Below the pieces are notes generated by a model, which was not told the DNA's origin, ran no database searches, and saw nothing but the letters and a program-made list of their open reading frames with translations. A DNA stretch of 64,000 nucleotides from assembly GCA_013115145.1 (NCBI GenBank), contig JAAPAO010000012.1:79563-143562 (forward strand), written 5' to 3'. How positions within the stretch are numbered: the stretch's first letter is position 1; every line of letters begins with the position of its first letter. This document shows, piece after piece, positions 42,886-63,200 of the stretch. This stretch comes from Perkinsus chesapeaki (Eukaryota > Perkinsozoa > Perkinsida > Perkinsidae). The translations under genes were made by a program, and so were the position numbers.

Positions 42886-44226
42886 TCACTCTTCCTTGTC
42901 ACCGCGCTGCTCTCTGATGGCTTCACGGGCATGGCCGGCATTGGAGGCACCAAAGGTGTTAGCAAGCAGCGTCTCCTTATCAAACTCGGACACCTTCATA
43001 AAACGCTTCATGTCGACCTTCCTCGAATCCTCCTTCGCCTGCCTTTCCCTCTCAACCTCTTCAGCACGCATCTTCAACGCATTAGGTCCACCGCCACCGA
43101 GCACTGCAATATCGCAAATGTCGGAGTCCCTCATGCTGTCCGTATCCTCCTCGTCATCTCCAACAGCGCTCAGTATCTGTCCCGCGTCGTAGGTAGCATC
43201 ATAGTCCATCACACTAGCCTTATTAAGGTCCTCGTTGATCCACACACGGCAGTCACCTTCGCCGCCGCTCCTCCCACCGAAGCCGAGGCCCTTCGCTCTG
43301 ACCTTGTTCCTGGCGTTCAGATAAACGTAGTTATCAGCGCTCGAGCGTGTGCGGCCTCGAATGACTCTGATCTCTGGCTCTAGCTGGAACAGCGTCGTCG
43401 TTACAGCGATCTTGTTGAAGAGGTCGTAGCCGTTGGTCGCTGCGTTATCAGGCACAATGGTGTCTTTGGACCAGTCCAAGGCGCTCCCAGTGGCTGCCCC
43501 CCAAACACGTCCCTTGGTGTCCTTTATAATAAGCGCAGTCGGGCCGGGATAGTGACCAGAGTTGCTCATGAGCCTCTGTAGTGAACGGCCGTGAGTGGAG
43601 CTCCAGTAAAGCGTGCTCAGTGGGGGAACGAGATCAGGATATATGATCCTCAGCAGCAAGACGTGGTACTCTTTGACGAAGGACGGCGGGTTGGCCTCAC
43701 TGCCGCCTGAAATGCTCATTCGGCGCTTGTTCATGCGAAGAGCGCATCTGAGCGACTCGTTGAAGACCGAACCAATGCCAGGCAGCATGGTCTGGAACTC
43801 GTGACCGAACACTGCCGAGTTCTCGGCAATCTTGATGTCTCGAGGAGGCTCGTTGGGATCGATCGATGCGACAACGAACTGGAGAACAGCGTGGGGTGTC
43901 CCAAACGCTTGGATTAGCGAGGCCCAGTCCGAACGATTGGCCAAGAGCTCCGCAGCGTCCTGGACCATCTCCTCGACCTTTGCTGACTTCTTACCACCGC
44001 CTGTGATGAAGTCGAAGAGTGCGGGCGCGAATGGCTTGTAGGCGATGAACAACTGGTTGCTGAAGGACTCCGGCGTGACATGACCGTTGCTCTCAGCAGA
44101 CTTGAAGAAGCTCTGTAGGAGGCTCATATCCGTATCAGGCAGGGCGTGACTACTGTTTCGACGCGTGCTTGCAGCCGCTGCTGCTGCATGAGCGGCAGAC
44201 GACTCAGTTGATGCTTTATTTCCCAT
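42886..44226 (-). CDS. N-myristoylated TLDc-domain protein (MEAK7-like)
   Basis: Single exon, 446 residues. The N-terminus MGNKASTESS fits an N-myristoylation signal (Gly2, Ser6). A helical region (residues about 30-200) precedes the TLDc domain: LYWSSTHGRSLQRLMSNSGH, PGPTALIIKDTKGRVWGAAT, then FQLEPEIRVIRGRTRSSADN and GLGFGGRSGGEGDCRVWINE. The C-terminal tail is charged and helical. Myristoylation plus TLDc resembles MEAK7/TLDC1, a membrane-associated protein linked to mTOR signalling and V-ATPase; TLDc proteins in general contact V-ATPase. That function is transferred from the family. Being intronless is unusual among its multi-exon neighbours. Confidence 0.85.
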   Translation of the reverse strand: MGNKASTESSAAHAAAAAASTRRNSSHALPDTDMSLLQSFFKSAESNGHVTPESFSNQLFIAYKPFAPALFDFITGGGKKSAKVEEMVQDAAELLANRSDWASLIQAFGTPHAVLQFVVASIDPNEPPRDIKIAENSAVFGHEFQTMLPGIGSVFNESLRCALRMNKRRMSISGGSEANPPSFVKEYHVLLLRIIYPDLVPPLSTLYWSSTHGRSLQRLMSNSGHYPGPTALIIKDTKGRVWGAATGSALDWSKDTIVPDNAATNGYDLFNKIAVTTTLFQLEPEIRVIRGRTRSSADNYVYLNARNKVRAKGLGFGGRSGGEGDCRVWINEDLNKASVMDYDATYDAGQILSAVGDDEEDTDSMRDSDICDIAVLGGGGPNALKMRAEEVERERQAKEDSRKVDMKRFMKVSEFDKETLLANTFGASNAGHAREAIREQRGDKEE

Positions 44227-44670
44227 AGTGACAAATGGCTTAACCTAGAGGGAAATAATGTCACGCGCACAGAGCTAAGCTCAGCGACGAACGCGATCGC
44301 CTAGGAACACGAGAATTCGAGGAAGTCTTTCAGAGCGCCCAGGAACTTGAAGAGAGAAGAAGACATCCACTGGGAACGAAAGTAACATCTACTCGGTTAA
44401 CCGTGCAGGAACGGAAACCCAAGTTACACTGTCTAGCAGACAACCAACACAATCGCTGTCCCCCTCGACCACAGCCTGCAAACTAACGAGAATCGCACGC
44501 CTCTTGCCGAACAGAATCCACCACGAACCGGTAATCCACCAGGGCCACGCAACACCACGAAGCTAACAGAGCAGCTGCCACTACTTATGTAGACGACAAC
44601 CGCCGAACTCGGGTATAATATAATGTTATAGTGCAAGTTATTCAACATCAAAGTCAGCAGCAGCCTCTTG

Positions 44671-45779: not shown

Positions 45780-48700
45780 CTAAACTCGGCCATAGCCGCC
45801 CCCGCCGGGTGTCATCAGTCTCAGTCTGTCGCCCCTAGCCATTTGCACCGTCCTCTTGCCGCCGATGTTAACCTCTTGAGCAGCTTCGCGCTTCAACCAA
45901 AGATTCAGTCCTTTCATACCGCACCCGCCGCCAGCCATACCATACGGCGATCTTGCCCTGCGTTCCGTTAGAACCGAAACATGAAGTGCGCGAACAAATT
46001 CTAGCTCTCTGAGCACGCCACAACCTCCAGAATGAGCGCCCTCTCCACCGCTGCCCTCGCGGAGGCCGAAGCGACGAACGATGCAGGGATAGCGGCGCTC
46101 CATGATCTCGACGTCGGTGATCCTGGTATTGGTCATATGCGTGTGGACTCCGCTGACCCCGTTCCAGGTCGGGCCGGCTCCGGAGCCGCCTGCCACGGTC
46201 TCGTAGTAGCCGAAGGTTTCATCACCGAAGGTGACGTTGTTCATGCAGCCACAGCTGGCCGCGCAAAACTCGAATGCTCGGAAGATCACGTCGACCACTC
46301 TTTGACTGGTCACGACATTGCCGCCGACAACGGCAGCGGTGGGGGACGGGTTCAGCATGCACTGCCCTCGCTCTGGCAGGACCACCTGGACAGCTTCGAG
46401 GCACCCCTGATTGAGCGGGATGTCCGAGTCTACCATGCAGCGTAGGCAGTAGATGACTGCTGACATAGTGACAGCCGGTGGGGCATTGGTGTTGCCGACC
46501 ACCTCCGGCCCAGAATCGGTGAAATCGAAGATCGCGCTGGCCCGTTTGCCCCCTCCGCCATCTTTGAGCAAACGAACCTACAGTGAAATGTACAACCTCA
46601 ACAAGCGCACCGGTTACCTTCAGCTTGATGGCGCTGCCGTCGTCCATGAAGTCCTCAGCCTCCCCCTCCATACCGTGCTTCTCCGCCCAGGTGTAGAGCA
46701 TGCTAAGCACCGCCTGTCTGGCGTTTTCCCTAATGTGATGCAAGTACGCGTGCACAACCTTCAGGCCGTAAGTCTGGACCATCTCGTGAACCAAAGAGAT
46801 TCCTTGTTGATTAGCAGCCACCTGGGCTCGGAGGTCCGCCAGGTTGTCCTCGAGGTTCCTCGTCCCGGCAGTAGTGAGCAGCTTGGTGATCCCCACTTCG
46901 TCAAAGCCTTGCTCGGCACAGACCAGTTTATGGGTGACGATAGCGCAGCCCTCCTGAGCCAGGCTGGTAGAGTTGGGTGGCATGCTGCCAGGCTCGACGC
47001 CACCGACATCAGCGTGGTGGCCTCGTGACGCCACAACAAAAGCGACGTTATCTCCCTCGAAGACCGGTGTCATGACCGTGATGTCCGGTAAATGGGACCC
47101 TCCAGCCAGCTGGGGATGATTCGACACCAGCACATCGCCGTGGCGGAGCTTCCCTTCCCACAGGCCTAGTTGGATTTTAACAGCCTCCTGCATGGCTCCC
47201 AAGTGCACAGGTATGTGCGGAGCGTTCGCGATGAGACCGCCGTCGGGGCCGAAGACGGCACAGGAAAAGTCAAGTCTGTCCTTGACGTTGACGCTGGTGG
47301 CGGTGCGCTGCAGGCATCTGCCCATCTGCTCGGCGATGCTCATGAACTTGTGGCTGAAAATGGACAGCTGTATCGGGTCCGCCACTTCCACGTTTAGAAG
47401 GGTGTTGGTGTCACCAAGCTGCTTAACATCGACAACATAGTCGCCGTCACCGTTGACCCTAGCCGTGCAGTCTGGCTCTATAACAATAGTGCCGGTGGTC
47501 TGCACGATGATGGCTGGTCCCCGAACACACGCCCCTGGCTTCAAGTTGGCCTCCAGGAACACTGGAGTGTCCTTCACTCGACCATGCCCTTCGAAATAAG
47601 CACTTGTCAGCTCGTCGGGCATGGCCTGGTACTCCTCGGTAGACGGTGGGCGAGTGAACTCGAAGGCATCCTCTTTAACTGCGCGTGCTCTCACTCTGAT
47701 GTCGTCGATGAGGAGGTCCCTGCCGACCATCAGGAAGCCATATTCCCTCTGGTAGGCTCGCTCGAAGGCTCTCTGGTAGTCCCCGTTGTCGCCGTCCTCG
47801 ACTGCGGTCATGATGGCTGTGTCAGTGCCGGCGTAGCGCATGTTCAGGTAGTACTTAGTGTGGATGTTGCCGTGGTGCCCGGCCTTCTCCAGCGACCTCA
47901 CCGCCTCCCTCTCGAGCTCCGCAAGGGTCTCCGCCCATGGACCGTTCGCTTGCCATTTCTGCGCGGCCGGGACCTGCTTGTCAACAACCTCATCAGCAAG
48001 AGCCAGACCAAAGGCGGACAGTACCCCAGCGAACCGGTGAACGAAAACCGTTTCAATGCCAAGTGCTCTAGCCATCGCACAAGCGTGCTGCCCACCAGCG
48101 CCTCCGAAGCAGGCCAGGACGTGCGCTCTCACATCGTAGCCCCTCATCTGAGTCATATTGCGGATGGGTCTGCACATAGCCTCATTGGCAACCCTGATAA
48201 ACCCCGCAGCGCAGGCGTCGATGTCGTCACCGAGCCCCATCTGCGCGGCTAGCTCCCCGAGGGCTGCCCGCGACGCCTCGACATCCAGAGGTTGATCTTG
48301 GGTCTCGCCGAATATCCGAGGGAAGTGGCTCGGTATGAGCCTTCCCAAAACCAAGTTGGCGTCGGTCACAGCCAGCTTGCCTCCTCTCTTCCTGTAGCAC
48401 ACCGGGCCCGGGTGGGCTCCTGCCGACTCTGGACCGACGCACAGCAGACCGTGCTCGTAGGTTAAGAGACTGCCGCCTCCAGCAGCCACAGTGGTGATGT
48501 CCAGCTGCGGGGCCTGGACCGTCACGCCAGCTGTAACCGTCTCATATATGTGCTCGAATCCAACCTTTGGGTCGTAGCGACTGACATCGGTGGAGGTGCC
48601 GCCCATATCGAAGCCAACCACTGGAGTGTCATTCCCGAGGGCGCGAGCGGTGGTTTTTGCGAAGCCGACCACTCCTCCGGCCGGCCCAGACAGGATCGCC

Positions 48701-49621
48701 TTGTGGCCGGTGAAGTCTTGCATCCGAGCCAAGCCCCCATCAGACTGCATGAACAAAAGCCTGGTGTTGTCCGTCTCCACCAGTGCGCGTTCGAAGCCAT
48801 TGCAGAAGTTCCTGAGATAGGTTCTGATGGTCGGCGTCAAATACGCGTCGGCCACCACCGTGTGGCCCCTCGCAACGGCCTTGGCCATTGCCAGCACCTC
48901 ACTGGATGCCGAGACATGGGCGAAGCCCATAGACCGGCACAGGGCGGCCACCTCCTTCTCGTGGTCGCCATAGATATAGCTGTGCATGAGCAGGATAGCC
49001 ACACTCTGGATGCCCTCATCAAGCAAGATCTGCAGCCTCGCCCTCAAAGTTTCGACGTCCAGTGGGCGCTCAATTCGGACTTCCTCGCCTGTTCGACCTT
49101 TCACCACTCTCCCGGGGAGATAGTCGGTCTCCCGCGCCAAGACCACACGCTCCGGCACCTCAACCACCTTCGTGTACAGCGTGTCCGGGCGCCTTATTTT
49201 AACGTCGAAAATGGCGGGTCGAGTCTGGTTGCCGATTTCCAAGAGATCCGCGAAACCCTCCGTGACGAGCAGTGCGCAGGTCGTTCCCTTCCTCTCTAGC
49301 AAGGCGTTGGTGGCCACAGTGGTGCCCATCCGAATGGACTCTATCTCACCGCAGCGGACTGGCTCCCCGGCTGGATGCGGCTTGCCTGTGAACTCCTGCA
49401 GAATTCGACGGATGCCTTCTCTCGGAGCATCCCTGAAAAACGGAGTCTGGCAACGAGACAAGAATGACAGCATCAACCTACGGGTAGTTGTCGGGGTCCT
49501 CGGAGAGGAGCTTGCGGACGATCTTCCGATGGCCGCCGTGACCGTCGGGTACCTCTGCATAGACGTCGGTGAAGGTGCCACCACGATCGATGGCAAAACG
49601 GAATTTCCCACCGTCAGACAT
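45780..49621 (-). CDS. OPLAH: 5-oxoprolinase (ATP-hydrolysing), three exons
   Basis: Converts 5-oxo-L-proline plus ATP and water to L-glutamate in glutathione turnover. Exon 1 49482-49621, exon 2 46618-49432, exon 3 45780-46577. The introns (49433-49481 and 46578-46617) are GT-AG and in phase. The total is 3753 nt, 1250 residues, close to the family size. The N-terminal HyuA-like part has [19 protein letters not shown] and [20 protein letters not shown]. The middle has [35 protein letters not shown] and [20 protein letters not shown]. The HyuB-like C-terminal part has [20 protein letters not shown] and [20 protein letters not shown], ending [13 protein letters not shown]. Fused HyuA-HyuB order is that of eukaryotic 5-oxoprolinase rather than separate bacterial hydantoinase subunits. 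Confidence 0.95.
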
Positions 49622-49793
49622 TTTAAAACGGGAACGCTGGACTGCAGCGGCTGGAGAGACAAATGGACACGGAGAGAACTCAACAGAAAAAGAGATACGT
49701 AAGGCACTCGGTAAGGGATAGGGAGTCCACACTATGATAGGATGCAATGATATAACAGGGTTCGGAGATCAGTAAACAGGTCGATAAAGATGA

Positions 49794-51728
49794 TTAGGTA
49801 GGTTGGACAAACCTTTGAGAATACCGCCAGAGTAGGAGGACAGTGGCTCGCTCTTCCAGCGTGATCGATTTCCTTCTGTAAGCCTCACACATGGCTTTTC
49901 TGATCGGCGCCACTTCCCCATTTCTGTCAGCTCTCGGCAGCTCCTCCATTATAGGTTGATATGTCCGAGTGAGCAGGTGACCGAGGCACCTCTCTCTCAT
50001 CTTACCGATCCTCTCTATTCGGCAACTGCATATCAAACTCGCACACAGTCGAGCAAGCGTCCACTGCTGCGGTGGGAGGCCGGCACCACCTTCATCCAGA
50101 GCCTTCTCGATGTCTCTATGAAGGTGGTAGCTCACAGGAACTGAAGTCGTGGTGCCACGGGCCAATAAGACCCCCACCAGAGGCGTCGGGCAGAAGACCC
50201 CGGCGATCTTAGGCCTCTCCGTCGGCGGCCGGCTCTTCCTCTCCTCGAAGGCACGAGCCACCTCGTACTTCCTCCTGATCTCCGCCGCATGGTTGCTCCC
50301 CTGATGCTTCGCCAAGACATGGTTGTCCATCCCGGATGCCGACAGCATCTCATGGCACCCTCTCACCGGGCATTCCCGCTCTACCTCTGTTACCACACCG
50401 TTGCGCAAGTATGTTTCCTCGACGGCCTTCTGTTCCTTAGGCTTTTGCCACTCCCAGTCCGAATCGATCTCATCCCTCTTCCCCTCCTCAGCCTTCGCCT
50501 TTTTCCCCGACTTAGGCCTCTTGCGCTGCTTTTTCCTGCATCGCTCCCCTCCTCTGGACATGCCATCTGCTCCGTGAGCTTCCTTCCCCAAGCTCGCCGG
50601 GGTGCCACTGGAGGACGCAGAGCTCCGTCGAGTAGATGGCGATGACAGTTCAACTCCTACAGCCTCCCCTTGCCCTTTCATATTCAAGCCACTTGCGTTC
50701 CCCGCATCGGCAACGCCACCATCACTACTGGTCCTCGCAGGCCCGGCCTCATGCCTGTCACCTTCCCTAGGCACGTCTGGTAGCCCTTCGACCTTCGCTT
50801 TCTTATTCCACTCCCGTGACTTCTTGGTAAGCTTCTTCCTCTTCACCCCGCTCGCCCTCCCACCTCTTGGTGACGACGACGATGCATCTACATCATCCCA
50901 AGACTGTCTGCTGGTCCCCCATGCGTTCCCGGAAGTCGCAACCGTCGGAGCCGAGCTCTGACTCTCTCCCCAGTTAATCGCCACTGGGGCCTTCTTTTCC
51001 GGTGCTCTTATAAGTGACGTCTCCCGCCTTCTACGTCGCCGAGGTATTTCAGCCTCAGACCCAGCCGGCTGCGTCTGGCATATAGGACCCGGTCCGCCCC
51101 CTTCTTGCCCCCCAGAACAATAGTTTTGCCACGGTGCTCCATTGCGCTCCTCTTGAAGGTTCCCTTCGGAGCCCTGCCTCCTCGCATCCTTCCTCCGATA
51201 CCTCCTCCCTAGTACCTTATCCTCCCTCGATTCTGCACTCCACTCCCGCCTCCTTCCCCACTGACTAGGTCCTTCAGTACCAACACAATTAGCTGCAAAT
51301 CTATTATACGGTATTCTTTGAGCCGGTGGCGGTGGCGGCGGCGGCGGAGGAGGCTGGGAGTCGCTGCCATCTGTCCTCCTACGAACACTGCTTCCCCTAT
51401 CGTATGGCCTCTGCGGTGGTGGCGGCGGTGGAGGGGGTGGAGACGGGTGAGGCGACGAGTAACTCTGCGAGCCATGATTCGACCTCCTATCCCTTTGGAC
51501 ACTTCGGTCTCTATCACGCCGCTGCCACCAAGGCCGCCGCTCAACAGGACTGTTGTTCTCCTCCTCCTCCTTGGTAAGGTCCACCTTCTCTGTCTGATGC
51601 TTCCTCTGGCCCACTCTCAGACGCTTGGCTGCCAGAGTCATCTCATACAAGTCCTTTGAAAAGGTTGGGGATTCTTCCGATGAGGAGCTCTTGACCTCCT
51701 CCACGTGATGAGCCCCTCGTGGGGACAT
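49794..51728 (-). CDS. Finger-like plus conserved C-terminal domain protein, long member, unrecognised family
   Basis: Single open frame. I choose the ATG at 51728 (MSPRGAHHVEEVKSSSSEES); an upstream in-frame ATG at 51782 adds 18 residues. The first two thirds are disordered and very charged, with two poly-proline tracts (9 and 10 prolines) separated by RTDGSDSQ-type sequence, many Arg runs, and Lys-rich NLS-like clusters (VKRKKLTKKSREWNKKAK; KKQRKRPKSGKKAK). The last 200 residues hold a finger-like CPVRGC..H..H (C-x4-C-x11-H-x4-H), ARAFEERKSRPPTERPK, CPTPLVGVLLARG, QQWTLARLCASLICSCRIER and the terminal ATVLLLWRYSQRF. The adjacent gene shares this whole C-terminal module. RNA-related nuclear function is a guess from composition. 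Confidence 0.72.
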   Translation of the reverse strand: MSPRGAHHVEEVKSSSSEESPTFSKDLYEMTLAAKRLRVGQRKHQTEKVDLTKEEEENNSPVERRPWWQRRDRDRSVQRDRRSNHGSQSYSSPHPSPPPPPPPPPQRPYDRGSSVRRRTDGSDSQPPPPPPPPPPAQRIPYNRFAANCVGTEGPSQWGRRREWSAESREDKVLGRRYRRKDARRQGSEGNLQEERNGAPWQNYCSGGQEGGGPGPICQTQPAGSEAEIPRRRRRRETSLIRAPEKKAPVAINWGESQSSAPTVATSGNAWGTSRQSWDDVDASSSSPRGGRASGVKRKKLTKKSREWNKKAKVEGLPDVPREGDRHEAGPARTSSDGGVADAGNASGLNMKGQGEAVGVELSSPSTRRSSASSSGTPASLGKEAHGADGMSRGGERCRKKQRKRPKSGKKAKAEEGKRDEIDSDWEWQKPKEQKAVEETYLRNGVVTEVERECPVRGCHEMLSASGMDNHVLAKHQGSNHAAEIRRKYEVARAFEERKSRPPTERPKIAGVFCPTPLVGVLLARGTTTSVPVSYHLHRDIEKALDEGGAGLPPQQWTLARLCASLICSCRIERIGKMRERCLGHLLTRTYQPIMEELPRADRNGEVAPIRKAMCEAYRRKSITLEERATVLLLWRYSQRFVQPT

Positions 51729-51905
51729 GGTAATGGGACGCAAACTAAACAGGAAGTCACATCCAACACAACAGCAATCCAAGAGTCAGAAAACGACTTT
51801 CTGATGGGGGCCCTTGCAGCCTCCCCGGGCGTGGTCCTGATAGCCGCCAACTGCCGCTCTGGCCGTCTCCTACTCTATGTTAACTACACGTGCCCATCAA
51901 CACTT

Positions 51906-52808
51906 TCAACGCTCTAATCTCTTCGAGAACCTATACAACAGCAGGGCCATGGCGCGGCCTTCAACTTGGTCGACGTGCAGGAATAGTGGGCTTCTTCTAT
52001 ATAGCCCCTTCAGCGTGCGCCGCACCTTGTCCAGGCCCTCTGCCCTCGGACACCTCTGCGCTCCAGCCTTATACACCGCCTCAATGAGTATCTCCATCCC
52101 TCTCAAAGGGACTCCCTTTATCTTCTGTTCCACCCTCATGGCCGTGATGAAAGCTCCGCAGACTGTGGCCAGGTCCCAGCGCCCAGGACGGTTATGAGTA
52201 ATCTCGTCCGATATCGCTTGCTCCAAGGCCGGATGCAGCCGAGACCGAGGCACCTTCCCACCATTGGAGAAGCCAGGGCAGTGATACCGCAGCAGAGGTC
52301 GAGGGCACCTGACGCCCCCGACGGTCAAGGGGGTGCCGGCCTGGTCCACCTCCTTCGCGAACGCTCTCGACCGAAGCTCAAATGCTTCTTGGCTGTCTCT
52401 GTGGAAAAGCCCGACGTGCTCGTCCCTTTCCCGACTGGTATCGAATACCCGAATGCACGTACGGCGCACCGGACAGGGGAACCGCCGAAGGTCGTCGAAC
52501 TCACCGGGCTCAACAGGAGCAAGGTTGAGCTCTCCCCACTCCGAATCTATGTCGCTACTCGCCCGGGTTTCCTCAGAGCGGCTCCTGCTGCGCTCTCGTC
52601 TCTGACAATGGTTCCCTCGACGCTGGCCATCCTTCCCGCGAAGGTTCGATCCCCAGTGGCGGCCTATCCGCCAGTCGTGGATCTCCGGTAACTGCGGATT
52701 CCCCCCTTCCGCTTTCACTCCCTCATCCTCCCCCACTAGATCAATCACCACCGGGTCCTCCTGCTTGAAGACCGGCCCAGAGCCCTTACCGCCGAAGCTC
52801 GACGGCAT
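51906..52808 (-). CDS. Finger-like plus conserved C-terminal domain protein, short member, unrecognised family
   Basis: Single open frame. The ATG at 52808 (MPSSFGGKGSGPVFKQEDPV) is preferred to an upstream one at 52889, which would add a hydrophobic leader unlike the paralogue. A short disordered N-terminal part contains DPVVIDLVGEDEGVK, a SUMO-interaction-like hydrophobic/acidic patch. The C-terminal module matches the neighbour: CPVRRTC..H..H (C-x5-C-x12-H-x4-H), CPRPLLRYHCPG, RWDLATVCGAFITAMRVEQK, RGMEILIEAVYKAGAQRCPR and the end AMALLLYRFSKRLER. Overall similarity is weak but collinear, so it is a tandem duplicate that has diverged. No known domain recognised. Confidence 0.72.
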   Translation of the reverse strand: MPSSFGGKGSGPVFKQEDPVVIDLVGEDEGVKAEGGNPQLPEIHDWRIGRHWGSNLRGKDGQRRGNHCQRRERSRSRSEETRASSDIDSEWGELNLAPVEPGEFDDLRRFPCPVRRTCIRVFDTSRERDEHVGLFHRDSQEAFELRSRAFAKEVDQAGTPLTVGGVRCPRPLLRYHCPGFSNGGKVPRSRLHPALEQAISDEITHNRPGRWDLATVCGAFITAMRVEQKIKGVPLRGMEILIEAVYKAGAQRCPRAEGLDKVRRTLKGLYRRSPLFLHVDQVEGRAMALLLYRFSKRLER

Positions 52809-53054
52809 TGAGAAATATAACCAATCAACTGGCATCAAGACGTGCAGCACGATGGAACACAACAGCGTCGAGGAGGACACTAGAAACATCGCTCGTACAC
52901 GAAACTAAAAACACAGCTAAAGGCTGGCCACCAGACCAGCTGCCGAGCCGACCAAAGTCAGCATCGGAAGAAGTCACTCGTGGCCACCTTGGGGTAATTA
53001 CGTTTAGTAAGGAGAACCTTCCACGAGGATCAGTTCTACCTTAATAGGGAATCT

Positions 53055-54142: not shown

Positions 54143-56711
54143 TTAAGTGAAGGCAGTGACCTTCCCTGGTGGAGCCGTCAGCAGCTTCGGCAGCCTCTCC
54201 CTCCCCACCAGCCTCTCCAACTCATACCCATCGCAACTGCTATAGAGGCAGGTCGAGTAGCACTGGCTCGGCACTCGGACATCTCGGAGGAGATCCTCGT
54301 AGATCTCAGGCCTCTCTGGGACGCCATAGAAGAGGTAGTGCTGGATTCCCTTAATGCGGAGCTTCCTGTACCACAGCAGCCTCCCGCTGATGAGGATCAC
54401 CTTCTTCTGCTGAGTCAGAAAGAACTGCCGCGCCCGTCCCATCGACTTGTTCGAAGAATACTCATCGATGGCCACGAAGGACGCGTCGTTCTTCTTGAGG
54501 AAGGCTCGAAGTCGGAGGTACTCAAAGTACGAACTCACGCAGATCGCCAGACGCCCCAGACCGGAACCGATGTCCCTCCAGTACCTTTCCTCGAAGAACT
54601 TTAGGAACTTATCGGAAGCCTCCGCAGGATCGTCAACAGCCACGTGCATGAACATCTGCTTGGCGATACCGAGATTGATCGAGCACTTGGCGACCGTGCC
54701 CCGCTTGGTCGACGGCAGCATCCGCACCCAACCGCGCCAGTTGCCCTCAGCTCCCTCGGACCAAGAGTCATGTACAACCGATTCCATAACAGGGTTGTAG
54801 ACGTCTGTCAACACCACAGTCTGACGGAACCTTCTAGCGAGACCATCCGCTATCCACGGCCTCAATCTCGAGATGTCGGCGCCATCTGGCAGAGTCGAGG
54901 GCTGTACGTTGGTGACCTTGAGAATCTCCAGGACGTGATCCCAGTTCTGCATGCTCAGAATGTCCGCGCGGTCCAGCACGACCATCTCTATCGACGAGAG
55001 GAAATCAAACTCTCGTTTGGTGTCGCCCTCCGCGCCTGTGATGAGCCTGAGGCCCAACGGCGAGGCTATTATGATGTCCGAGGCGCTAAAGGGGGCGTAC
55101 AACCGTACCATTCTCCGCCCCACTTGGATGCCAACTCTGAAGTCATCGTCGTTGAAATCATCCTCGGGGAAAATCCCTTCGCGCCAGCTAGTAGCCTCCG
55201 CTTGGCTGGAGAACTCCTCATTACCGAATTGTTCATCAAATCGTTTCCGGTTCATCGTCTGTTGGTTATTAGGCGCCAGTTTCAGCAGCCACTGGACGTA
55301 CTCCCGAGCGACGTTGCGGAAGGGGCACAAGATCAGCACCCTCGGCCTGGAGAAGCCCTGGTCCCTGTAGGGGTCGGTGTCGAACTCCTCGGTCTTCTCG
55401 CCCAGCAAGGCATGCCTCCTCAGCTTTTCATTATTCTTCCAAACCGTGTTCCTCGCCCGCACTACATGGGCCATCACATGGGCCATCGCCACTTTGCGTG
55501 TTTCCCTCTCGGTCTCGTAGTTCATGCCGCCGTAGACCACATCACTGTAGGATGACAGAGCCGAGGCCAGAGCGAGTCCTTCCGAGCTCAAAGATTCATT
55601 ATAGCACCCGTGCTCCTTGAATGACCGTTCAATCTTCGGCAGCAGGTCCGCGAACCCCTCACTGGCCTCCACTCGCTCCACCATCGCCCGACTACCATGC
55701 ACCTTACAGCGATCCAGCTGCTCAGTCAACCTGAGAGTGGCGTCCATGGAGTCATCCTCTACCCTGGGAATCTCCTGAAGGTTGTATGAAGCGTAACCGA
55801 TAGCATCACTTCCCCCCTCATCTGCGTCGCTGCCCGCCTCACTGCCGCCATCTTCCTCGTCGTCCGCTACTGCTATGGTTTCATCAGGCGCGTCACCATC
55901 TGCTATTTCCCCAGCTTCACCGGCAGGTTCCTCAGAGATCTCCTCGGATTCAACTTCCCCCTCATTCTCGAAAGTATCCTCTTCAACCTCCTGAGTATCT
56001 TCTTCAAGCAAAGATTCCTCCTCGTCACTTGAGAGCCTGTCAGCGTCCACCCCCAGGGACATCAGTAACTTATCGAAGTCGCCAGGCCCGTCCTCTGGCC
56101 CCTCCGACGGAGCCGTCAGCGCTTCCCTAACAGCCGCATGGGTCGCCCTTGATGCTGCTTCTGCCGCCGCCGCAGCCTGCATCCTAGCACTTCTTAAGGC
56201 ACCTGAGAGATGCATACATCATAGCGGAAGCTACGATATATCTAGCATGGTTCAAGCTCGGATACATACAGCCCTATGGGAAGATTCATGAGCAGACACC
56301 GGGAAACATGTGAAGCGCTCTATGCATAGTCGCCGGAGTAATCATTTTATAATAGCGATGTTACCTAGGAGAGCTCAATGGAAAAGCTTATCTTATACAG
56401 ATTCAATCCACAGGGTTACATTAACCATCGGCAATGATGATGAGTAAATTTTCTACGACGAATCCTCCACTCGGTCGTCGCTGGAAATATATTCGCTGTG
56501 GATCAATGACGGCATTTTCAGAGTAATAGATCACACCGTTGGCAGCAGTGCCTTTAGCCAATATCCTCTTTCTACCCTTGGCCTCCTGCCTGGCCTTCTT
56601 GTCCAGCTTCTTTTGTTTCTTCTCCATTACATCCTCCGCATCCATCTTCCGCTTTCTCTTCTTCCCCAAAGGGTTCTTTGCCTTATTCTTGTAGTTACGA
56701 AACTTTGGCAT
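54143..56711 (-). CDS. UTP25: UTP25-like U3 snoRNP / small-subunit processome protein, two exons
   Basis: UTP25 (digestive organ expansion factor) is a helicase-fold protein without ATPase motifs that acts in 18S rRNA maturation in the nucleolus. Exon 2 (54143-56202) holds an acidic N-terminal region and then the family core: RPRVLILCPFRNVAREYVQW, SDIIIASPLGLRL, FDFLSSIEMVVLDRADILSM and QNWDHVLEIL, FRQTVVLTDVYNPVMESV and LAICVSSYFEYLRLRAFLKK. It also has KKVILISGRLLWYRKLRIKG and IQHYLFYGVPERPEIYEDLL. Exon 1 (56537-56711), MPKFRNYKNKAKNPLGKKRK and a basic helix, joins through a 334-nt GT-AG intron in phase 1. The total is 744 residues, and this basic start suits a nucleolar protein. Alternatively exon 1 could be a separate small gene. 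Confidence 0.85.
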
Positions 56712-57419
56712 CAAAGCACAACCTTTTCGACAACTATCGAGCATCCCGACCCACCGACAACACAAACCTCTACTATTTGAAGATAAAAGGAAGCTCTCTA
56801 AAGATATTCCCGACAGCTCCTGGGTTCGGGAAACCTCGACGTGGTCGACGACCTGGCAAGTCTGTTCTCATCCAAATGACCGTCCAAACTGCCATCTGAC
56901 CCCGGGACGTTCGAGACGGTATTTCGCCCATGGTTCCCCTTTTTACACCACGCCTACTGCCTGTTAAGCCACGTTAATACTCCTGTTCGCTACATTCGGT
57001 CGTCTCATCGGTACACACAGGCCGCTACGTTGAGTGGTTAAATTCGCAGACTTGTACGATTGTATACATTATCCTTCTGTAAGTCTATCACTTCCAGTTC
57101 GTATTTTATTCCCAAGATCCTTCCCGTCCACGTTGCCCTCCGCGCTGGATGAGCTAGTTCTTGCATCATTTCCGTTCCTATTTGAAAGCCCGCTTCACTC
57201 AGATCTGCTAGCTGTGTGCCTTTCTGACACTGCTGTTTGCCTATACCAATACTTCCAGCATTTCACTTCGTGCGACATCGCCCCCGAAATTGCCGATAGC
57301 ACGCGCACGGTCGATCACAATGGCGGGCGCAACTAACGAAAAAACCGTTTCGCCCGCCGACTCGGCTCAGCTTTTCAGCGCAAGATATCGGTTCATTCTT
57401 CGGCCACTACTACTCGTCT
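56712..57419. promoter_or_regulatory. Divergent intergenic region (strand switch)
   Basis: About 700 bp between the start of the minus-strand UTP25 gene and the start of the first + strand DYFGH gene. It should contain both promoters. No TATA-like element is obvious. A pyrimidine-rich tract ending cttttcag (57371-57378) precedes the + strand start and could be a 5'UTR splice or trans-splice acceptor. Confidence 0.45.
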
Positions 57420-59011
57420 ATGTCCACTGAAGCAGCTCCTATCAACGTTGATCCTGCATCGATCCCCGCCGATGAGGTAAAGCCTCAGCCTGCCGTCGAG
57501 CTTGACGGTCTAAGTCCTATGCCCCAGTTTGGCGAAACGCCTATGGTAACGCTTATTTGACGTTTTAATGCCCGTCATGTTCTCTTAGTCGAGAGCGCAG
57601 TGTGTTTCCAATGAGCTAGGGGTTGTCCTCAGTTTACTGTGTCTTGCTCAGGCTCCTTGGGCTGCTCAGCCTATCGCTCCTCCTCTTCCGTCTGCAAGGA
57701 ACCTAGCTCCGACTGACTTTCAACAGCAGTTCTTGAATAGCTGCTTATATACTGGCAAGAATGTTCTGGATGAAGGGGCCACAGCGTAGGTCTTTCTTAA
57801 TCTTAGAGTTGCGCAGTTTTATTCAGGTTCTCTGCTCCTGGTATCCCTGATGGCACTGATCTAATGTTCAAGGCCAACGGTACTCAGGTCGGCGGCCCCT
57901 CCTTTGCCTCGCTTCTTCAACCTCCAGCTCAACCTGACTACTTTGGTCACTTGCTTGGGCACCCTATGAACCCTACCTTGTATGAGGATGACAGCGACAA
58001 CTCTGATGTCGATGACAGCAATGACGAATGCGACGATTCCAAGTCCGTGGAAGCTACTGAGAAGAAGCCTCTTGACTCACCTAACTCGAAGGAAGAGTCT
58101 CCTGTTGGCAAAGCCAAGTATAAGGCTACTCCCGACCTTGCTTCCGCTGAGGAGGACGACGACGACGCGAGTTCCGAGGATTCTGGAGATGATGACATCG
58201 ATTACTTTGGTCACATTATGGGCCACCCTATGAACATTGGCTCTGGCTCACAGAAGACCCCTAAATCGAAAAAGAAGTCTAAGAAGAAGAAGAGCAAGAC
58301 CGAGAAAGTGGATTCTGATGAACCGCAGGTGTCTGTTCTTAATCTATTCTTGGGTGGCGTGGAAGTATGTGATCGCGATGAGAACATATCGTAAGTTCTC
58401 GCCGATCTTGTGAATTTCAGTTTCTTTTCGCGCAGGCACTTTGCGAAGAACGAAGACGACTCAAGCATGGAGATGTCGAAGGAGGAGGAAGGCCCTGTAG
58501 AGTATGGCAACAAGGAGAATGTCGACGAGGAAGAGGAAGAAAAGATCGACCAATCTGCGTTCGAAAGCAGTCCTATCAAAGATGTCTCTGCCTTGGTGGA
58601 AGAGCCGTCCAAGATCGAGCCTCCTGTCGAGTCGCCGAAGGTTAAACCAGCTGAGGAGCCTGAGAAGACGGTGGAGCCTGAGAAGACCGTCGAGCCTGTG
58701 GCGCCTCCTGTGGTTAAACAGGCCCCCGCTCCTGTGCCAGTTCCTCGTCCTATAGAGGAGGTTAAAACTGCAAGTCAGAGTCCAAAGGAACTTGTCGCCG
58801 ATATGTCGTACAAGCGACCTCAGGCGTCTACTAATAAGTAACATGGCTTTTGTTGTTCTACTGCAATTTTGCTTGTCTCAGGATTTCAACGAAGGAGAAT
58901 ATTGATAAAGTTGTCGAAGATAATGCGATCTCTGGTAGAGTTCGAAGCGGACCAGCTGCTACCACGAAGAAGAAGTCATTCTTCGGCAGCCTGTGTGGTA
59001 GCAAGAATTGA
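57420..59011 (+). CDS. DYFGH-repeat acidic protein, paralogue 1, multi-exon
   Basis: Exon 1 MSTEAAPINVDPASIPADEV through LSPMPQFGETPM. Exon 2 APWAAQPIAPPLPSARNLAP and DFQQQFLNSCLYTG. Exon 3 has the first motif QPDYFGHLLGHPMN, an acidic linker, the second motif DYFGHIMGHPMN, a Lys-rich stretch and NLFLGGVEVCDRDENIS. Exon 4 is a Glu/Pro/Val-rich linker. The last exon, after a GTAACA donor near 58840, ends TKKKSFFGSLCGSKN-stop at 59009-59011. Introns are short GT-AG. No signal peptide, membrane segment or known domain. It shares all blocks and intron positions with the two following genes. Function unknown. Confidence 0.85.
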
Positions 59012-59438
59012 GTGCAAGCCATGCTCAGCTGCTTTTGCGGATGGGTTGACTGGTTAGTATTCTATTGTCTGCTGGTAAACTTCATTTCTATCAAGACCGT
59101 GATCTTGGTGGTTGCATGGTAACATGACTCACAGTACATTATTTGTTCTAATTAGACGTTCAGAAGGGAAGATGGTAAGGTGGTAGAGGTACTCGTTTCA
59201 CGCATAGCGTTGCATCCGAGTGCTTGAGCAATCTGTCGTCTGCTATGGAGGGATCCTCCTGTTGGAATCTGGCATCTGTCACTCCTTACCGTATCTCGCA
59301 TGTCTTATTATCATCGTTGGGACCGGAACTGCCAGTACTTACATGGGTATCTCCATTTTAAACTCTATTATTGCGTTATCTGTAAATTCATTATTAGCGC
59401 CTGTTCCTTTCAGCGGACTCTTCTATCGTCTATTTAAA
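59012..59438. other. Spacer between DYFGH paralogues 1 and 2
   Basis: About 430 bp with no supported gene. A pyrimidine tract ending in cctttcag just before 59414, close to the next start, resembles that before paralogue 1. Confidence 0.5.
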
Positions 59439-60843
59439 ATGGCCGTTAGCGTCCAAGCTCCTGAGCAAGTTTACGAGCAGCACATTGAGTCCTACGAGGG
59501 AGCCTATACCACGAGTCCCATGCCTCAGTACGGCGATGCGCCTATGGTGGGACTTCTGCTGTGTGGTCTAATTCGCTCATTTGTCTTTTTTTAGGGAATG
59601 TGGCACTCTGTACCAATTGCGCCCCCGCTGCCCTCTGCGAGAGACATTGCTCCTATGGACTTCCAGCAAGCTTTTGTCCACAAGTGCCTCTATCCCAGCC
59701 AGAGCTTTCTCGTGTCAGAGGGGTTCGCAGAGGAGGAGAGAGAAGATGAGGAGTAAGTATTGCATTTAATTAGTGCTTTGAGAGCTCACTTTGTTCAGAG
59801 TCGTCGTCGAGACTAAGGTTCGTACTCCTAGACGACCTCGTGAACCTCAACCGGACTATTTTGGTCATCTTCTTGGTCACCCTCTTTCTGCGGACGACGA
59901 TGAGGATGAGGATGAGAAGAGCGACGATGATATCGATGCCGACCACTCTCAGGCAGAGGCTGATGTTGTCGATAATATCCCTGAAAAGCCTTGTGAGGAG
60001 TCTCCTGAAGAGCCCGAGTGTGTTCAAGAGGCACCGGAAGGCGAACCTGAAGCTGGTGACCCTGCTGTGGAGACTCCATCTGAGTCGGGCAAGGACGATG
60101 TTGTTTCTGATGACTCCACTGAAGACGCCGATGCTGATTACTTTGGGCATATAATGGGACATCCCATGGTTCACAATGGCAGTCAGCGTAAGAGCAAGAC
60201 ACCAAAGTCCAAGAAGGATATCGAGTCCAAGAAGGAAATCGAGTCGAAGACTCAAGAATCTGACTCTCAAGAGACCCAAGAATCTGTGCTTGGCTTGTTC
60301 CTAGGCGGTGTTGAAGTTTGCGACCGCGAAGAGAACATTGGGTAAGCAGGCTTAGGTGGTCTTTGAAACTCTGGTATTCATCTTCAGGAAATTCACTGCT
60401 CGCCCCGGAGAAGAGACAGCTTCAGCCGAGCCTCCCGTGAAACCAATCGAGGAGCCTGCAGTGGAAGCTGAAAAGACTCCGGAATGTGACGTTCTCGAGG
60501 AGGCTCCGGAGGTTGTGAACGAGCCCGAGTCTAGTGTCCCGGCCAAGGCTACCGAACCTACTGCACCGTCGCGCACCGAAGCAGCTGTGCCTGCTAAGCG
60601 GAACACTTCACCTCTTCCTGTTGAACAACCTTCTAGGGATCCTGAGGTCGTACAGCCTCGCTCTGTCCAAATTGAGGCTAAGGAGTAAGTCCGGTTGTTA
60701 AACTATCGCTCTTACCGTTGGCTTTCAGGTATGAAAAGGTCGCCAGGCCTCCAACGGAGTTGACGTCCTCAGGGCCGGCTAGACCTGCCGCCAAAAAGAA
60801 GTCTTTCTTTGCTGGTCTCTGCGGTAGTCGCAATCAGGACTAG
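59439..60843 (+). CDS. DYFGH-repeat acidic protein, paralogue 2, multi-exon
   Basis: Exon 1 MAVSVQAPEQVYEQHIESYE through SPMPQYGDAPM. Exon 2 MWHSVPIAPPLPSARDIAP and KCLYPSQSFLVSEGFAEEE. Exon 3 VVVETKVRTPRRPREPQPDY opens the first motif (DYFGHLLGHPLS), an acidic linker, the second (DYFGHIMGHPMV), a Lys-rich stretch and GLFLGGVEVCDREENIG. Exon 4 KFTARPGEETASAEPPVKP and a Glu/Pro-rich linker ending QIEAKE. Exon 5 YEKVARPPTELTSSGPARPA, then KKKSFFAGLCGSRNQD-stop at 60841-60843. Four short introns keep phase at every junction tested. Lineage-specific in appearance; function unknown. Confidence 0.87.
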
Positions 60844-61622
60844 ATCCTCCTTCCAAGTTACAGGGACTGTGCTCTCAGTATCTCATCATGATGCATGCTA
60901 AACCGTGTACACTATACTGCGAATTAATACGAGTATCTAGGAGGCTGTCATACGCACTTGCTGTGGTGGTTTGCTTACGATGGTTCTTTCTGGAATCAGA
61001 TGTGTCATTAAACGTCAACTATTTTTCATCACTTGCCTTGTTTATCCGCTACTGATCATATTAGTATAACGGCTACCGAAAACGAGGTTTATCATGTAAC
61101 CTGGTAATGTTTGGTTTGTCAATTAGCAATTGGGATATTCCTCTTCTCTTTCCTTTTGCGTCAGGCGTACTTCACGTTTTCAGCCTTTCGGTAGACTTGG
61201 CTCTCTGGCTTCATTGTCTGTACCCGTTTTCTTCGTGCATCGCTCTCTTCCGGTTTCGGTCTTACTCTTTTGGAAGGAAATGTTGCGCTTCCTTGCATCA
61301 TTGCATTTCAATTAGATAATTATTGTCGGACGCTACATTTTTTCTGACTACGTCTATGCTTCGTTTGCTGCTTTTACCTTCCAACCTCGAAGCCTTTGTA
61401 AGTAGGTACACTGTATATCTCAGGTCAATGGGGTTCAGAAGAGCTAGTGATTAACTGCGCAACGCTGCACACTCTTGTGTCTCGACGGTTTCGTGACAGT
61501 TTCGCTGTAGTCCAGAATGGCGTAGCGAAATCATTCCTAGCTCGTTCTGTGACATGATCGCAACCATTATTCTCTATTTACTCATTTCTTCCAGTAGCTT
61601 TGCTTTCTAGCTCTCTGAAACA
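60844..61622. other. Spacer between DYFGH paralogues 2 and 3
   Basis: About 780 bp, pyrimidine-rich toward 61100-61320, with no supported gene. Candidate acceptors cttccag (61588-61594) and ctttctag (ending 61610) precede the next start. Confidence 0.5.
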
Positions 61623-63200
61623 ATGGCCGTCAGCGTTGAAGCACCCAAGCAAATCAACGTAGATCAGCAGGCTGAGTCCTACAATGAAGCTAACGCCTTG
61701 AGTCCGATGGCCCAATATGGCGAAACCCCCATGGTGAGTGGTGATTAAATTATCTCAAAGTACTCTGTTTTATTTTAGGCGTTGTGGCAGTCTGTCCCTA
61801 TTGCCCCGCCTCTTCCTTCTGGTGACAACATCGCTCCTCCCGATTTTACGGAGAATTTTGTCCAGAGGTGTCTGTACCCCAGCCAAACTTTTCTAGTTTC
61901 TGAGGGATTCGCACCTGAAGAATCAAAGTGGGTTACTGATCAGTGTAATTTTTCGGTGTATTTATTTATCTTGTTAACACTGTAGGCCCGAGGAGAAGTC
62001 GCCTGAGAAGTCCGAGTCACCCGAGAAGGAACCATCCCGTCCCCGCACCCCGAAGGCTCCTCGTGAACCTCAGCCTGACTACTTCGGTCACTTGCTTGGT
62101 CATCCGTTGAGCGTTGAGGAGGAAGAGGATAGCGAAGAGGGTAGCGTCAAGGATGAACCGAAGGACGAAGTTGAGGTCGTGGAGGACAACGAAGTCAAGG
62201 ACGAGGAAAAGCCTGCTTCCCCTGGAAATGCTGATGATGAGGTGGCGGAGAAGAATGTGGTTGAAGAAACTGAGAGAACCCAGAAGGACGTCTCGGCCGA
62301 GTCTGGTGGAAAAGCTACCGAGGAGTCGCCCGCTGAAGTTGCTCAGAAGCCGGTTAATGACGATTCCGAAGTAGCTAAGAAAGAACCCTCCGAGCCAGAG
62401 GCTTCGGAAGATGGTGATGACGATGTCGACTACTTCGGCTACATCATGGGCCACCCGATGAATCGGGGAACTGGAAGCCGCAAGGTGAAGAAGGCTCGTA
62501 CTCCGGTTCCAGAAGCTTCATCTCCGGCTAAGGAAGAACCAAAGAAGGAAGAAGAGTCCCAAGACTCTCAACCGTCCGTTCTCGGACTGTTTTTGGGTGG
62601 CGTCGAAGTGTGTGATCGAGAGGAGAATATTGGGTAGGTGGTTGGGTCTTTCTTCTGGTCGAGCTAATCGCTGTTTATTTCGTATTTTTAGTCAATTCAC
62701 CTCCCGCGGCGACGAGCCTGTAGATGAAGCTGCTGACGAGAAGGTCGAGGAAGATGTTCCAGCTCCCGCTAAGGGCGAGCAAGCGCCAGTTGAGAAGTCT
62801 TGTGAAGAGGAAGGTCGCGAACAACCCCCAGCATTCACCAACGAAGAGGTTGCTGAGGTCGCTGAGCCCACTGAGACCAGTCCGGCTGATGTTCGAGTAG
62901 AAGAGGTAGCTCCCACCAAAGCTGACGAGCCTACTGAGAAGAAAGCCGAGGGCGAAGTCGAGGCAGCGGTGGAAAGAAAGTCAGATGATAAGGATCTGGA
63001 GAAGCCCGCTGAGAAATCAGAGGCCGCTGTGGGCGATAAGCAGTGAGTGTTTAGGAATTACCGTAGCGCAGCGTATGATTCTCTTCAGACCTGAGAAGAG
63101 AAGTAACGAGGTGATCGGAGCCTCTAACACTAGCAAGAAGCCGGCCAAGAAGAGCCGATCTTTCCTCGGTGGCTTATGCGGCAGCAAGACAATGGACTAG
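61623..63200 (+). CDS. DYFGH-repeat acidic protein, paralogue 3, multi-exon
   Basis: Exon 1 MAVSVEAPKQINVDQQAESY through SPMAQYGETPM. Exon 2 ALWQSVPIAPPLPSGDNIAP and RCLYPSQTFLVSEGFAPEE. Exon 3 PEEKSPEKSESPEKEPSRP, then PREPQPDYFGHLLGHPLS, a long acidic linker, DYFGYIMGHPMN, a Lys-rich stretch and GLFLGGVEVCDREENIG. Exon 4 QFTSRGDEPVDEAADEKVE, a Glu/Ala/Pro-rich linker ending AAVGDKQ. Exon 5 PEKRSNEVIGASNTSKKPAK, then SRSFLGGLCGSKTMD-stop at 63198-63200. It is the closest relative of paralogue 2. Conserved cysteines in CLYPSQ, EVCDRE and GLCGS. Function unknown. Confidence 0.87.

What the first reader, a model, noticed from the sequence alone, without database searches (positions are those of the whole stretch)
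57420..63200. Tandem three-gene family with paired DYFGH..GHP motifs
Three adjacent + strand genes encode acidic, apparently disordered proteins that share only short blocks: PIAPPLPS, CLYPSQ (CLYTGK in copy 1), DYFGHLLGHP, DYFG(H/Y)IMGHPM, FLGGVEVCDR.ENI and a basic SFF.GLCGS-type end. The linkers between blocks have diverged freely while the blocks are nearly frozen. That is the pattern of short linear motifs binding a partner, or of a small metal- or ligand-binding core built from the two His-containing motifs. I recognise no known domain.
Basis: partly seen in the sequence, partly recalled or inferred. Interest (0 to 1): 0.88.

Follow-up and report, generated by a model that had tools for sequence, protein, structure and literature searches.

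The report
Perkinsus-only disordered motif protein trio
Three neighbouring genes of a clam parasite make floppy, acidic proteins that keep only a few short docking-like motifs and a greasy basic tail; the family is real and old, was found only in Perkinsus and in two unnamed environmental sequences, and its binding partner is unknown.

Summary
The window is from Perkinsus chesapeaki. Three + strand genes (57420-59011, 59439-60843, 61623-63200) each have five exons with intron phases 0,2,2,2 and encode acidic proteins of 451, 406 and 456 aa. They share blocks A (PIAPPLPS...CLY), B (DYFGHLLGHP), C (DYFG[H/Y]IMGHPM), D (LFLGGVEVCDR.EN) and E (basic SF[FL]..LCGS tail). Synonymous sites in the blocks are saturated while the protein is held: purifying selection, not recent gene conversion. 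Two models are mostly unstructured (mean pLDDT 47.5 and 49.9), with local order mainly over A, B and C. Relatives were found only in Perkinsus, plus two unnamed environmental sequences. The tree gives three orthologue groups, so the triplication predates the P. chesapeaki/P. olseni split. No Pfam, NCBIfam or PDB match passes threshold.

Best reading: a lineage-specific disordered scaffold, with paired DYFGH motifs as docking sites and a probable membrane-binding tail. Partner and location are inferred. A metal-binding core is not supported. It is a genuine orphan family of a fairly ordinary kind, less surprising than first scored.

The parts
57420..59011 (+). gene 1 (g1), 451 aa, exons 57420-57545, 57652-57785, 57827-58390, 58436-58837, 58882-59011 (stop included)
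   Evidence: open spliced frame, GT-AG introns, phases 0,2,2,2; orthologue P0004 of P. olseni
59439..60843 (+). gene 2 (g2), 406 aa, exons 59439-59546, 59595-59752, 59799-60341, 60388-60684, 60729-60843; protein identical to the annotated FOL47_000944 of P. chesapeaki
   Evidence: (script used 60844, one base past the stop); orthologues P0002 (P. olseni) and P0005 (P. marinus)
61623..63200 (+). gene 3 (g3), 456 aa, exons 61623-61733, 61779-61927, 61986-62633, 62692-63042, 63089-63200
   Evidence: grouped with P0003 of P. olseni and the unnamed environmental sequences P0006, P0007
57652..57785 (+). g1 exon 2, most of block A (PIAPPLPS ... CLYTGK)
59595..59752 (+). g2 exon 2, most of block A (PIAPPLPS ... 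CLYPSQSFLVSEGFA)
61779..61927 (+). g3 exon 2, most of block A
57936..57965 (+). g1 block B, DYFGHLLGHP
58200..58229 (+). g1 block C, DYFGHIMGHP, followed by a basic stretch
59854..59883 (+). g2 block B, DYFGHLLGHP
60136..60165 (+). g2 block C, DYFGHIMGHP
62077..62106 (+). g3 block B, DYFGHLLGHP
62428..62457 (+). g3 block C, DYFGYIMGHP (Tyr where the others have His)
58329..58390 (+). g1 block D, VSVLNLFLGGVEVCDRDENI, ends at an exon boundary
60283..60341 (+). g2 block D, SVLGLFLGGVEVCDREENI, ends at an exon boundary
62575..62633 (+). g3 block D, SVLGLFLGGVEVCDREENI, ends at an exon boundary
58967..59008 (+). g1 block E, basic C-terminal tail KKKSFFGSLCGSKN
60793..60840 (+). g2 block E, basic C-terminal tail KKKSFFAGLCGSRNQD
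63150..63197 (+). g3 block E, basic C-terminal tail KSRSFLGGLCGSKTMD

Best explanation
The genes encode a Perkinsus-specific family of intrinsically disordered tether or scaffold proteins. Two related docking motifs (B and C), a proline-rich N-terminal block with a short helix (A) and a hydrophobic block (D) each engage a folded partner, probably the same partner twice for B and C. The acidic linkers act as flexible, charge-constrained spacers. The C-terminal basic, Phe- and Cys-containing tail (E) is proposed to hold the protein on an acidic membrane face, by Phe insertion and possibly S-acylation. Shown by sequence and computation: the gene models, the family, block conservation, predicted disorder, three old paralogue groups. 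Inferred: binding of partners, bivalency, membrane attachment. The partner is unknown.
For: Same gene structure three times. pN 0.05-0.19 in blocks B and C and 0.08-0.21 in D, against 0.49-0.59 in linkers, with synonymous sites saturated in the blocks (pS 0.65-1.33), so recent conversion does not explain the identity. Models: mean pLDDT 47.5 and 49.9, no residue at 90 or more; ten-residue means rise mainly over A (64-69 and 71-78), B (71 and 72) and C (64 and 64). B has LL or LF and C has IM in 9 of 9 sequences, so the two copies were probably distinct before the triplication. The last 20 residues carry +4 or +5 in 7 of 7 full-length proteins whose whole net charge is -38 to -61. K, S, F, L, C, G and S of the tail are invariant in 7 of 7.
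Against: No partner, localisation or transcript was tested. Block A (pN 0.16-0.30) and tail E (pN 0.15-0.37; 8 of 15 identical between g2 and g3) are clearly less constrained than B, C and D. Blocks D and E rise little in the models (48-53), and AlphaFold had only 6 or 7 sequences. The tail is no recognised lipidation signal: its Cys is fifth or seventh from the end, not fourth as in CAAX. A nuclear role is also open, since a net-basic stretch follows block C. Blocks A and D are longer than typical 3-10 residue motifs (recalled range), which would also fit a domain that folds on binding.
Confidence: 0.5

Rival explanations
1. B and C are ATG8-interacting motifs (AIM/LIR): F-G-H-[L/I] after acidic residues docks into ATG8, used in tandem for avidity, so the proteins are selective-autophagy or plastid-membrane receptors.
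For: Canonical AIM is [W/F/Y]xx[L/I/V] (PMC10183829, passages). DYFGH[L/I] or DYFGYI fits at both places in 9 of 9 sequences. ATG8-family matches lie on two contigs of this assembly; 0 of 14 named control genomes match.
Against: The motif is degenerate: shuffles of the 7 full-length sequences give 1.5-2.2 matches each and reach the observed number in 11-48% of 1000 shuffles. AIM does not explain the invariant Tyr, Gly and following GHP.
Confidence: 0.12
2. The His and Cys of the blocks form a small metal- or ligand-binding core.
For: Three His columns and three Cys columns are invariant in 7 of 7 full-length sequences; a fourth His column is His in 6 of 7.
Against: g3 has Tyr at that column; spacing between the His motifs varies from 86 to 143 residues; both models lack a packed core, pTM 0.18 and 0.21.
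Confidence: 0.08
3. The proteins are nuclear or chromatin-associated disordered regulators: the basic stretch after block C is a nuclear localisation signal and the acidic linkers serve as activation or chaperone-like regions.
For: A net-basic stretch follows block C in 9 of 9 sequences (+1 to +10 over 25 residues), with TPK or SPK in several.
Against: The stretch is weak in P0002 and P0005 (+1); no nuclear domain matched; the tail is left unexplained.
Confidence: 0.15
4. The blocks belong to a fast-evolving structural (pellicle or cytoskeletal) protein whose role is bulk rather than specific docking.
For: Acidic, low-complexity composition; codon adaptation to two tubulin frames of 0.60-0.62, above three neighbouring genes at 0.48-0.55.
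Against: Conserved non-repetitive blocks in three old paralogue groups point to specific contacts; no cytoskeletal family matched. The codon signal is weak: overall codon bias is no stronger than in the neighbours (ENC 54-56 against 51-53) and GC3 differs.
Confidence: 0.12

Closest known systems
Disordered proteins with sparse docking motifs and divergent linkers, e.g. the HP1-retention region of KMT5C (PMC11723951, abstract and section list read)
   Same: Two motif modules joined by a disordered linker whose sequence diverges
   Different: No sequence relation known; KMT5C's partner is known, this one's is not; KMT5C's linker is held in functional length, whereas B-C spacing here ranges 86-143
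MARCKS-type acidic disordered membrane proteins (recalled; one search found no paper for it)
   Same: Very acidic disordered body with a short basic Ser/Phe patch proposed to meet the membrane
   Different: None of 7 full-length proteins starts Met-Gly, no MARCKS match in Pfam, and the patch is at the C-terminus and carries a Cys
ATG8-interacting (AIM/LIR) receptors such as C53 (PMC10183829, passages read)
   Same: More than one aromatic-xx-aliphatic motif in a disordered region
   Different: C53's shuffled motifs differ from the canonical order seen here; extra invariant residues surround the core here; binding untested

Membership tests
ATG8-interacting (AIM/LIR) proteins | [W/F/Y]xx[L/I/V] core with an acidic or Ser/Thr residue just before it | tested here: met
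   Both DYFGH motifs fit in 9 of 9 sequences, but 11-48% of shuffles match as often, so the test says little
ATG8-interacting (AIM/LIR) proteins | ATG8 present in the organism | tested here: met
   PF02991 matches over cut-off on contigs C501 and C245
ATG8-interacting (AIM/LIR) proteins | Measured binding to ATG8 | not testable with these tools
   no binding assay or complex prediction available
MARCKS family | N-terminal Met-Gly myristoylation site (recalled) | tested here: not met
   0 of 7 full-length proteins start Met-Gly
MARCKS family | Sequence match to the family profile | tested here: not met
   no MARCKS match in Pfam-A for the 3 window proteins at E up to 1
Alveolins and other named alveolate pellicle proteins | Match to a family profile | tested here: not met
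   only PF23510, an Apicomplexa microprotein model, at E 0.11 in 1 of 3 proteins; that Pfam holds an alveolin model is recalled
Small metal-binding domain | Ligands in a folded core | tested here: not met
   no fold in either model, B-C spacing 86-143, one His is Tyr in g3; metal binding itself not testable
CAAX-prenylated proteins | Cys fourth from the C-terminus | tested here: not met
   Cys is fifth from the end in g1 and P0004 and seventh in the other 5 of 7
Disordered motif-bearing scaffolds | Predicted disorder with conserved short islands | tested here: met
Disordered motif-bearing scaffolds | A folded partner that binds the motifs | not testable with these tools
   no partner known

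The most novel reading that the evidence does not exclude
DYFG[H/Y][L/I]xGHP is a docking-motif class of its own, used in tandem by a membrane-tethered disordered receptor that evolved in perkinsids to recruit one conserved cellular machine (possibly ATG8 at a plastid or other membrane).
Probability: 0.12. Interest if true: 0.6.

Novelty: new variant of a known kind. Interest (0 to 1): 0.36.

Why it matters
If right, it adds a genus-specific disordered protein family with an undescribed tandem docking motif, kept since before the split of P. chesapeaki and P. olseni. Finding the partner of DYFGH..GHP would say which cell process perkinsids have rewired. Until then it is one orphan family among many.

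Tried and rejected
Known-domain explanations: Pfam on the three proteins gave one sub-threshold match (E 0.11, 1 of 3), NCBIfam two sub-threshold matches (E 0.054 and 0.11, 1 of 3 each); PDB sequence searches with two profiles and two block peptides gave none (E up to 1, up to 10). PHROGs and PADLOC were not searched, being phage and prokaryote libraries.

Recent gene conversion as the cause of block identity: rejected, synonymous sites are saturated. A wider gene family in the genome: none found at the sensitivity used. These searches have known misses: with the tail alone found only g2, and the tail pattern found g1 and g2 but not g3. The extra GATTACTTTGGNCAC match on contig C68 lacks the rest of the motif (not among the six).

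Literature: no paper in the held library names any of five locus tags. Searches for Perkinsus with genome assembly, intrinsic disorder, alveolins, draft genome, ATG8 or transcriptome (in only 10 of 11 and 10 of 22 papers were listed) were seen as listings and start of abstracts; no title or abstract seen was about this family. From these I opened only PMC10183829 (passages). on linear motifs led to PMC11723951 (abstract and section list). on MARCKS found nothing, so that comparison is recalled. Fold search was not used because both models are low-confidence.

Full report
Where it is. The window is bases 79563-143562 of contig C24 in a 35.4 Mb, 884-contig assembly. The second gene's protein is identical to FOL47_000944 of Perkinsus chesapeaki, a parasite of bivalves (recalled). 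The gene at 54143-56218 on the minus strand is UTP25.

The genes. Splicing by hand gives three intact genes: g1 57420-59011 (451 aa), g2 59439-60843 (406 aa), g3 61623-63200 (456 aa). Each has five exons; all 12 introns are GT-AG; phases are 0,2,2,2 in each; introns are 41-106 bases. Predicted pI is 4.36-4.48. No N-terminal signal peptide or membrane span was apparent by eye; no predictor was run.

The blocks. Five blocks are shared: A, about 56 columns; B, DYFGHLLGHP; C, DYFG[H/Y]IMGHPM; D, SVL.LFLGGVEVCDR.EN; E, the tail. Identity between paralogues in aligned positions: all blocks 85-101 of 131; linkers 62 of 247 (g1-g2), 53 of 266 (g1-g3) and 85 of 266 (g2-g3). pN over all blocks is 0.15-0.22 against 0.49-0.59 in linkers. 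By block it is B 0.11-0.19, C 0.05-0.08, D 0.08-0.21, A 0.16-0.30 and E 0.15-0.37, so A and E are less constrained. pS in the single blocks is 0.65-1.33, that is, saturated, so the shared residues are held by selection and not by recent conversion; values over 1 reflect short blocks. Seven full-length sequences share 75 invariant columns, clustered beyond 2000 shuffles.

Relatives. A profile of the three proteins found 6 proteins (E up to 0.01) among 8000 scored candidates; a profile with linkers masked found 7 (E up to 10) among 8000, the same six and P0007; a region search with one P. olseni protein found 3 of 135 candidates, each already known. Named sources are P. chesapeaki (1), P. olseni (3) and P. 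marinus (1); P0006 and P0007 come from an unnamed source. These searches see only relatives that share exact 5-residue words and lie within a length range, so distant or much longer relatives could be missed. The tree of 9 sequences gives g1+P0004, g2+P0002+P0005 and g3+P0003+P0006+P0007, each starred for support; its root is drawn at the midpoint only. The triplication therefore predates the split of P. chesapeaki and P. olseni. Only one P. marinus copy was found; whether the others are absent or unannotated is not known, and g1 and g3 of P. chesapeaki did not come up as database proteins either. Within the assembly I found only these three genes.

Structure. Two AlphaFold2 models, of g2 and of the P. 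olseni g1-type relative P0004, have mean pLDDT 47.5 and 49.9 and pTM 0.18 and 0.21. Confidence rises mainly over block A (short helices), B, and C (a five-residue helix in each model). D and E stay at 48-53. The same islands appear in both models, although the two alignments share members and are not independent.

Anatomy that bears on function. B and C look like an internal duplicate: B has LL (LF in P0003 and P0007) and C has IM in 9 of 9 sequences. C-D spacing is 45-53 residues, B-C 86-143, D-E 140-192 (in that script's output the B-C linker charge is labelled AB-link). The B-C linker is acidic in 9 of 9, a net-basic stretch follows C in 9 of 9, and the last 20 residues carry +4 or +5 in 7 of 7. 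Three Cys and three His columns are invariant in 7 of 7; a fourth His is Tyr in g3.

Mechanism. The best-supported reading is a disordered scaffold: folded partners bind the blocks, the linkers act as charged spacers, and the basic Phe/Cys tail rests on a membrane. The first part is supported by conservation and predicted disorder; bivalency and the membrane step are inference. The partner may be ATG8: both B and C fit the AIM definition (PMC10183829, passages) and ATG8 is encoded, but 11-48% of shuffles match as often, and the invariant Tyr, Gly and GHP are unexplained. A metal core is disfavoured. A nuclear role remains open.

Expression. Codon adaptation to two tubulin frames (L026, L027) is 0.60-0.62 for the three genes against 0.48-0.55 for three neighbouring genes. 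Against this: a third tubulin-family frame scores only 0.47, overall bias (ENC 54-56) is no stronger than in the neighbours (51-53), and GC3 is nearer the tubulins (0.51-0.55, 0.59-0.60) than the neighbours (0.66-0.70), which alone could raise the score. It is at most a hint; no transcript was examined.

Verdict. It is, as far as found here, a genus-restricted orphan family of a familiar kind, with an unknown partner, and deserves moderate rather than high interest.

Noticed in passing
49794-52904, minus strand: Two adjacent open frames (49794-51785 and 51906-52904) share a C-terminal region of 197 aligned columns at 30% identity (E 8e-14), starting with a zinc-finger-like CPVR..C stretch with two His; Pfam gave only a sub-threshold DUF4729 match for one and none for the other. 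Another tandem orphan pair.
   Followed up: partly
45780-49731, minus strand: A 5-oxoprolinase/hydantoinase gene whose Hydantoinase_B match stops part-way and seems to continue in a second overlapping frame (45780-46577), so there may be an intron or a frameshift near 46.2-46.6 kb.
   Followed up: no
42886-44244, minus strand: An open frame with a TLDc domain; if its first Met is the start, the protein begins MGNKAST and could be myristoylated (recalled rule).
   Followed up: no
56421-56867, minus strand: A small lysine-rich open frame between UTP25 and g1 with no Pfam match at E up to 0.01.
   Followed up: no
59011-61623: The gaps between the coding regions are short (427 and 779 bases) and g2 and g3 both start MAVSV; the arrangement would fit co-transcription with trans-splicing, which was not tested.
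   Followed up: no
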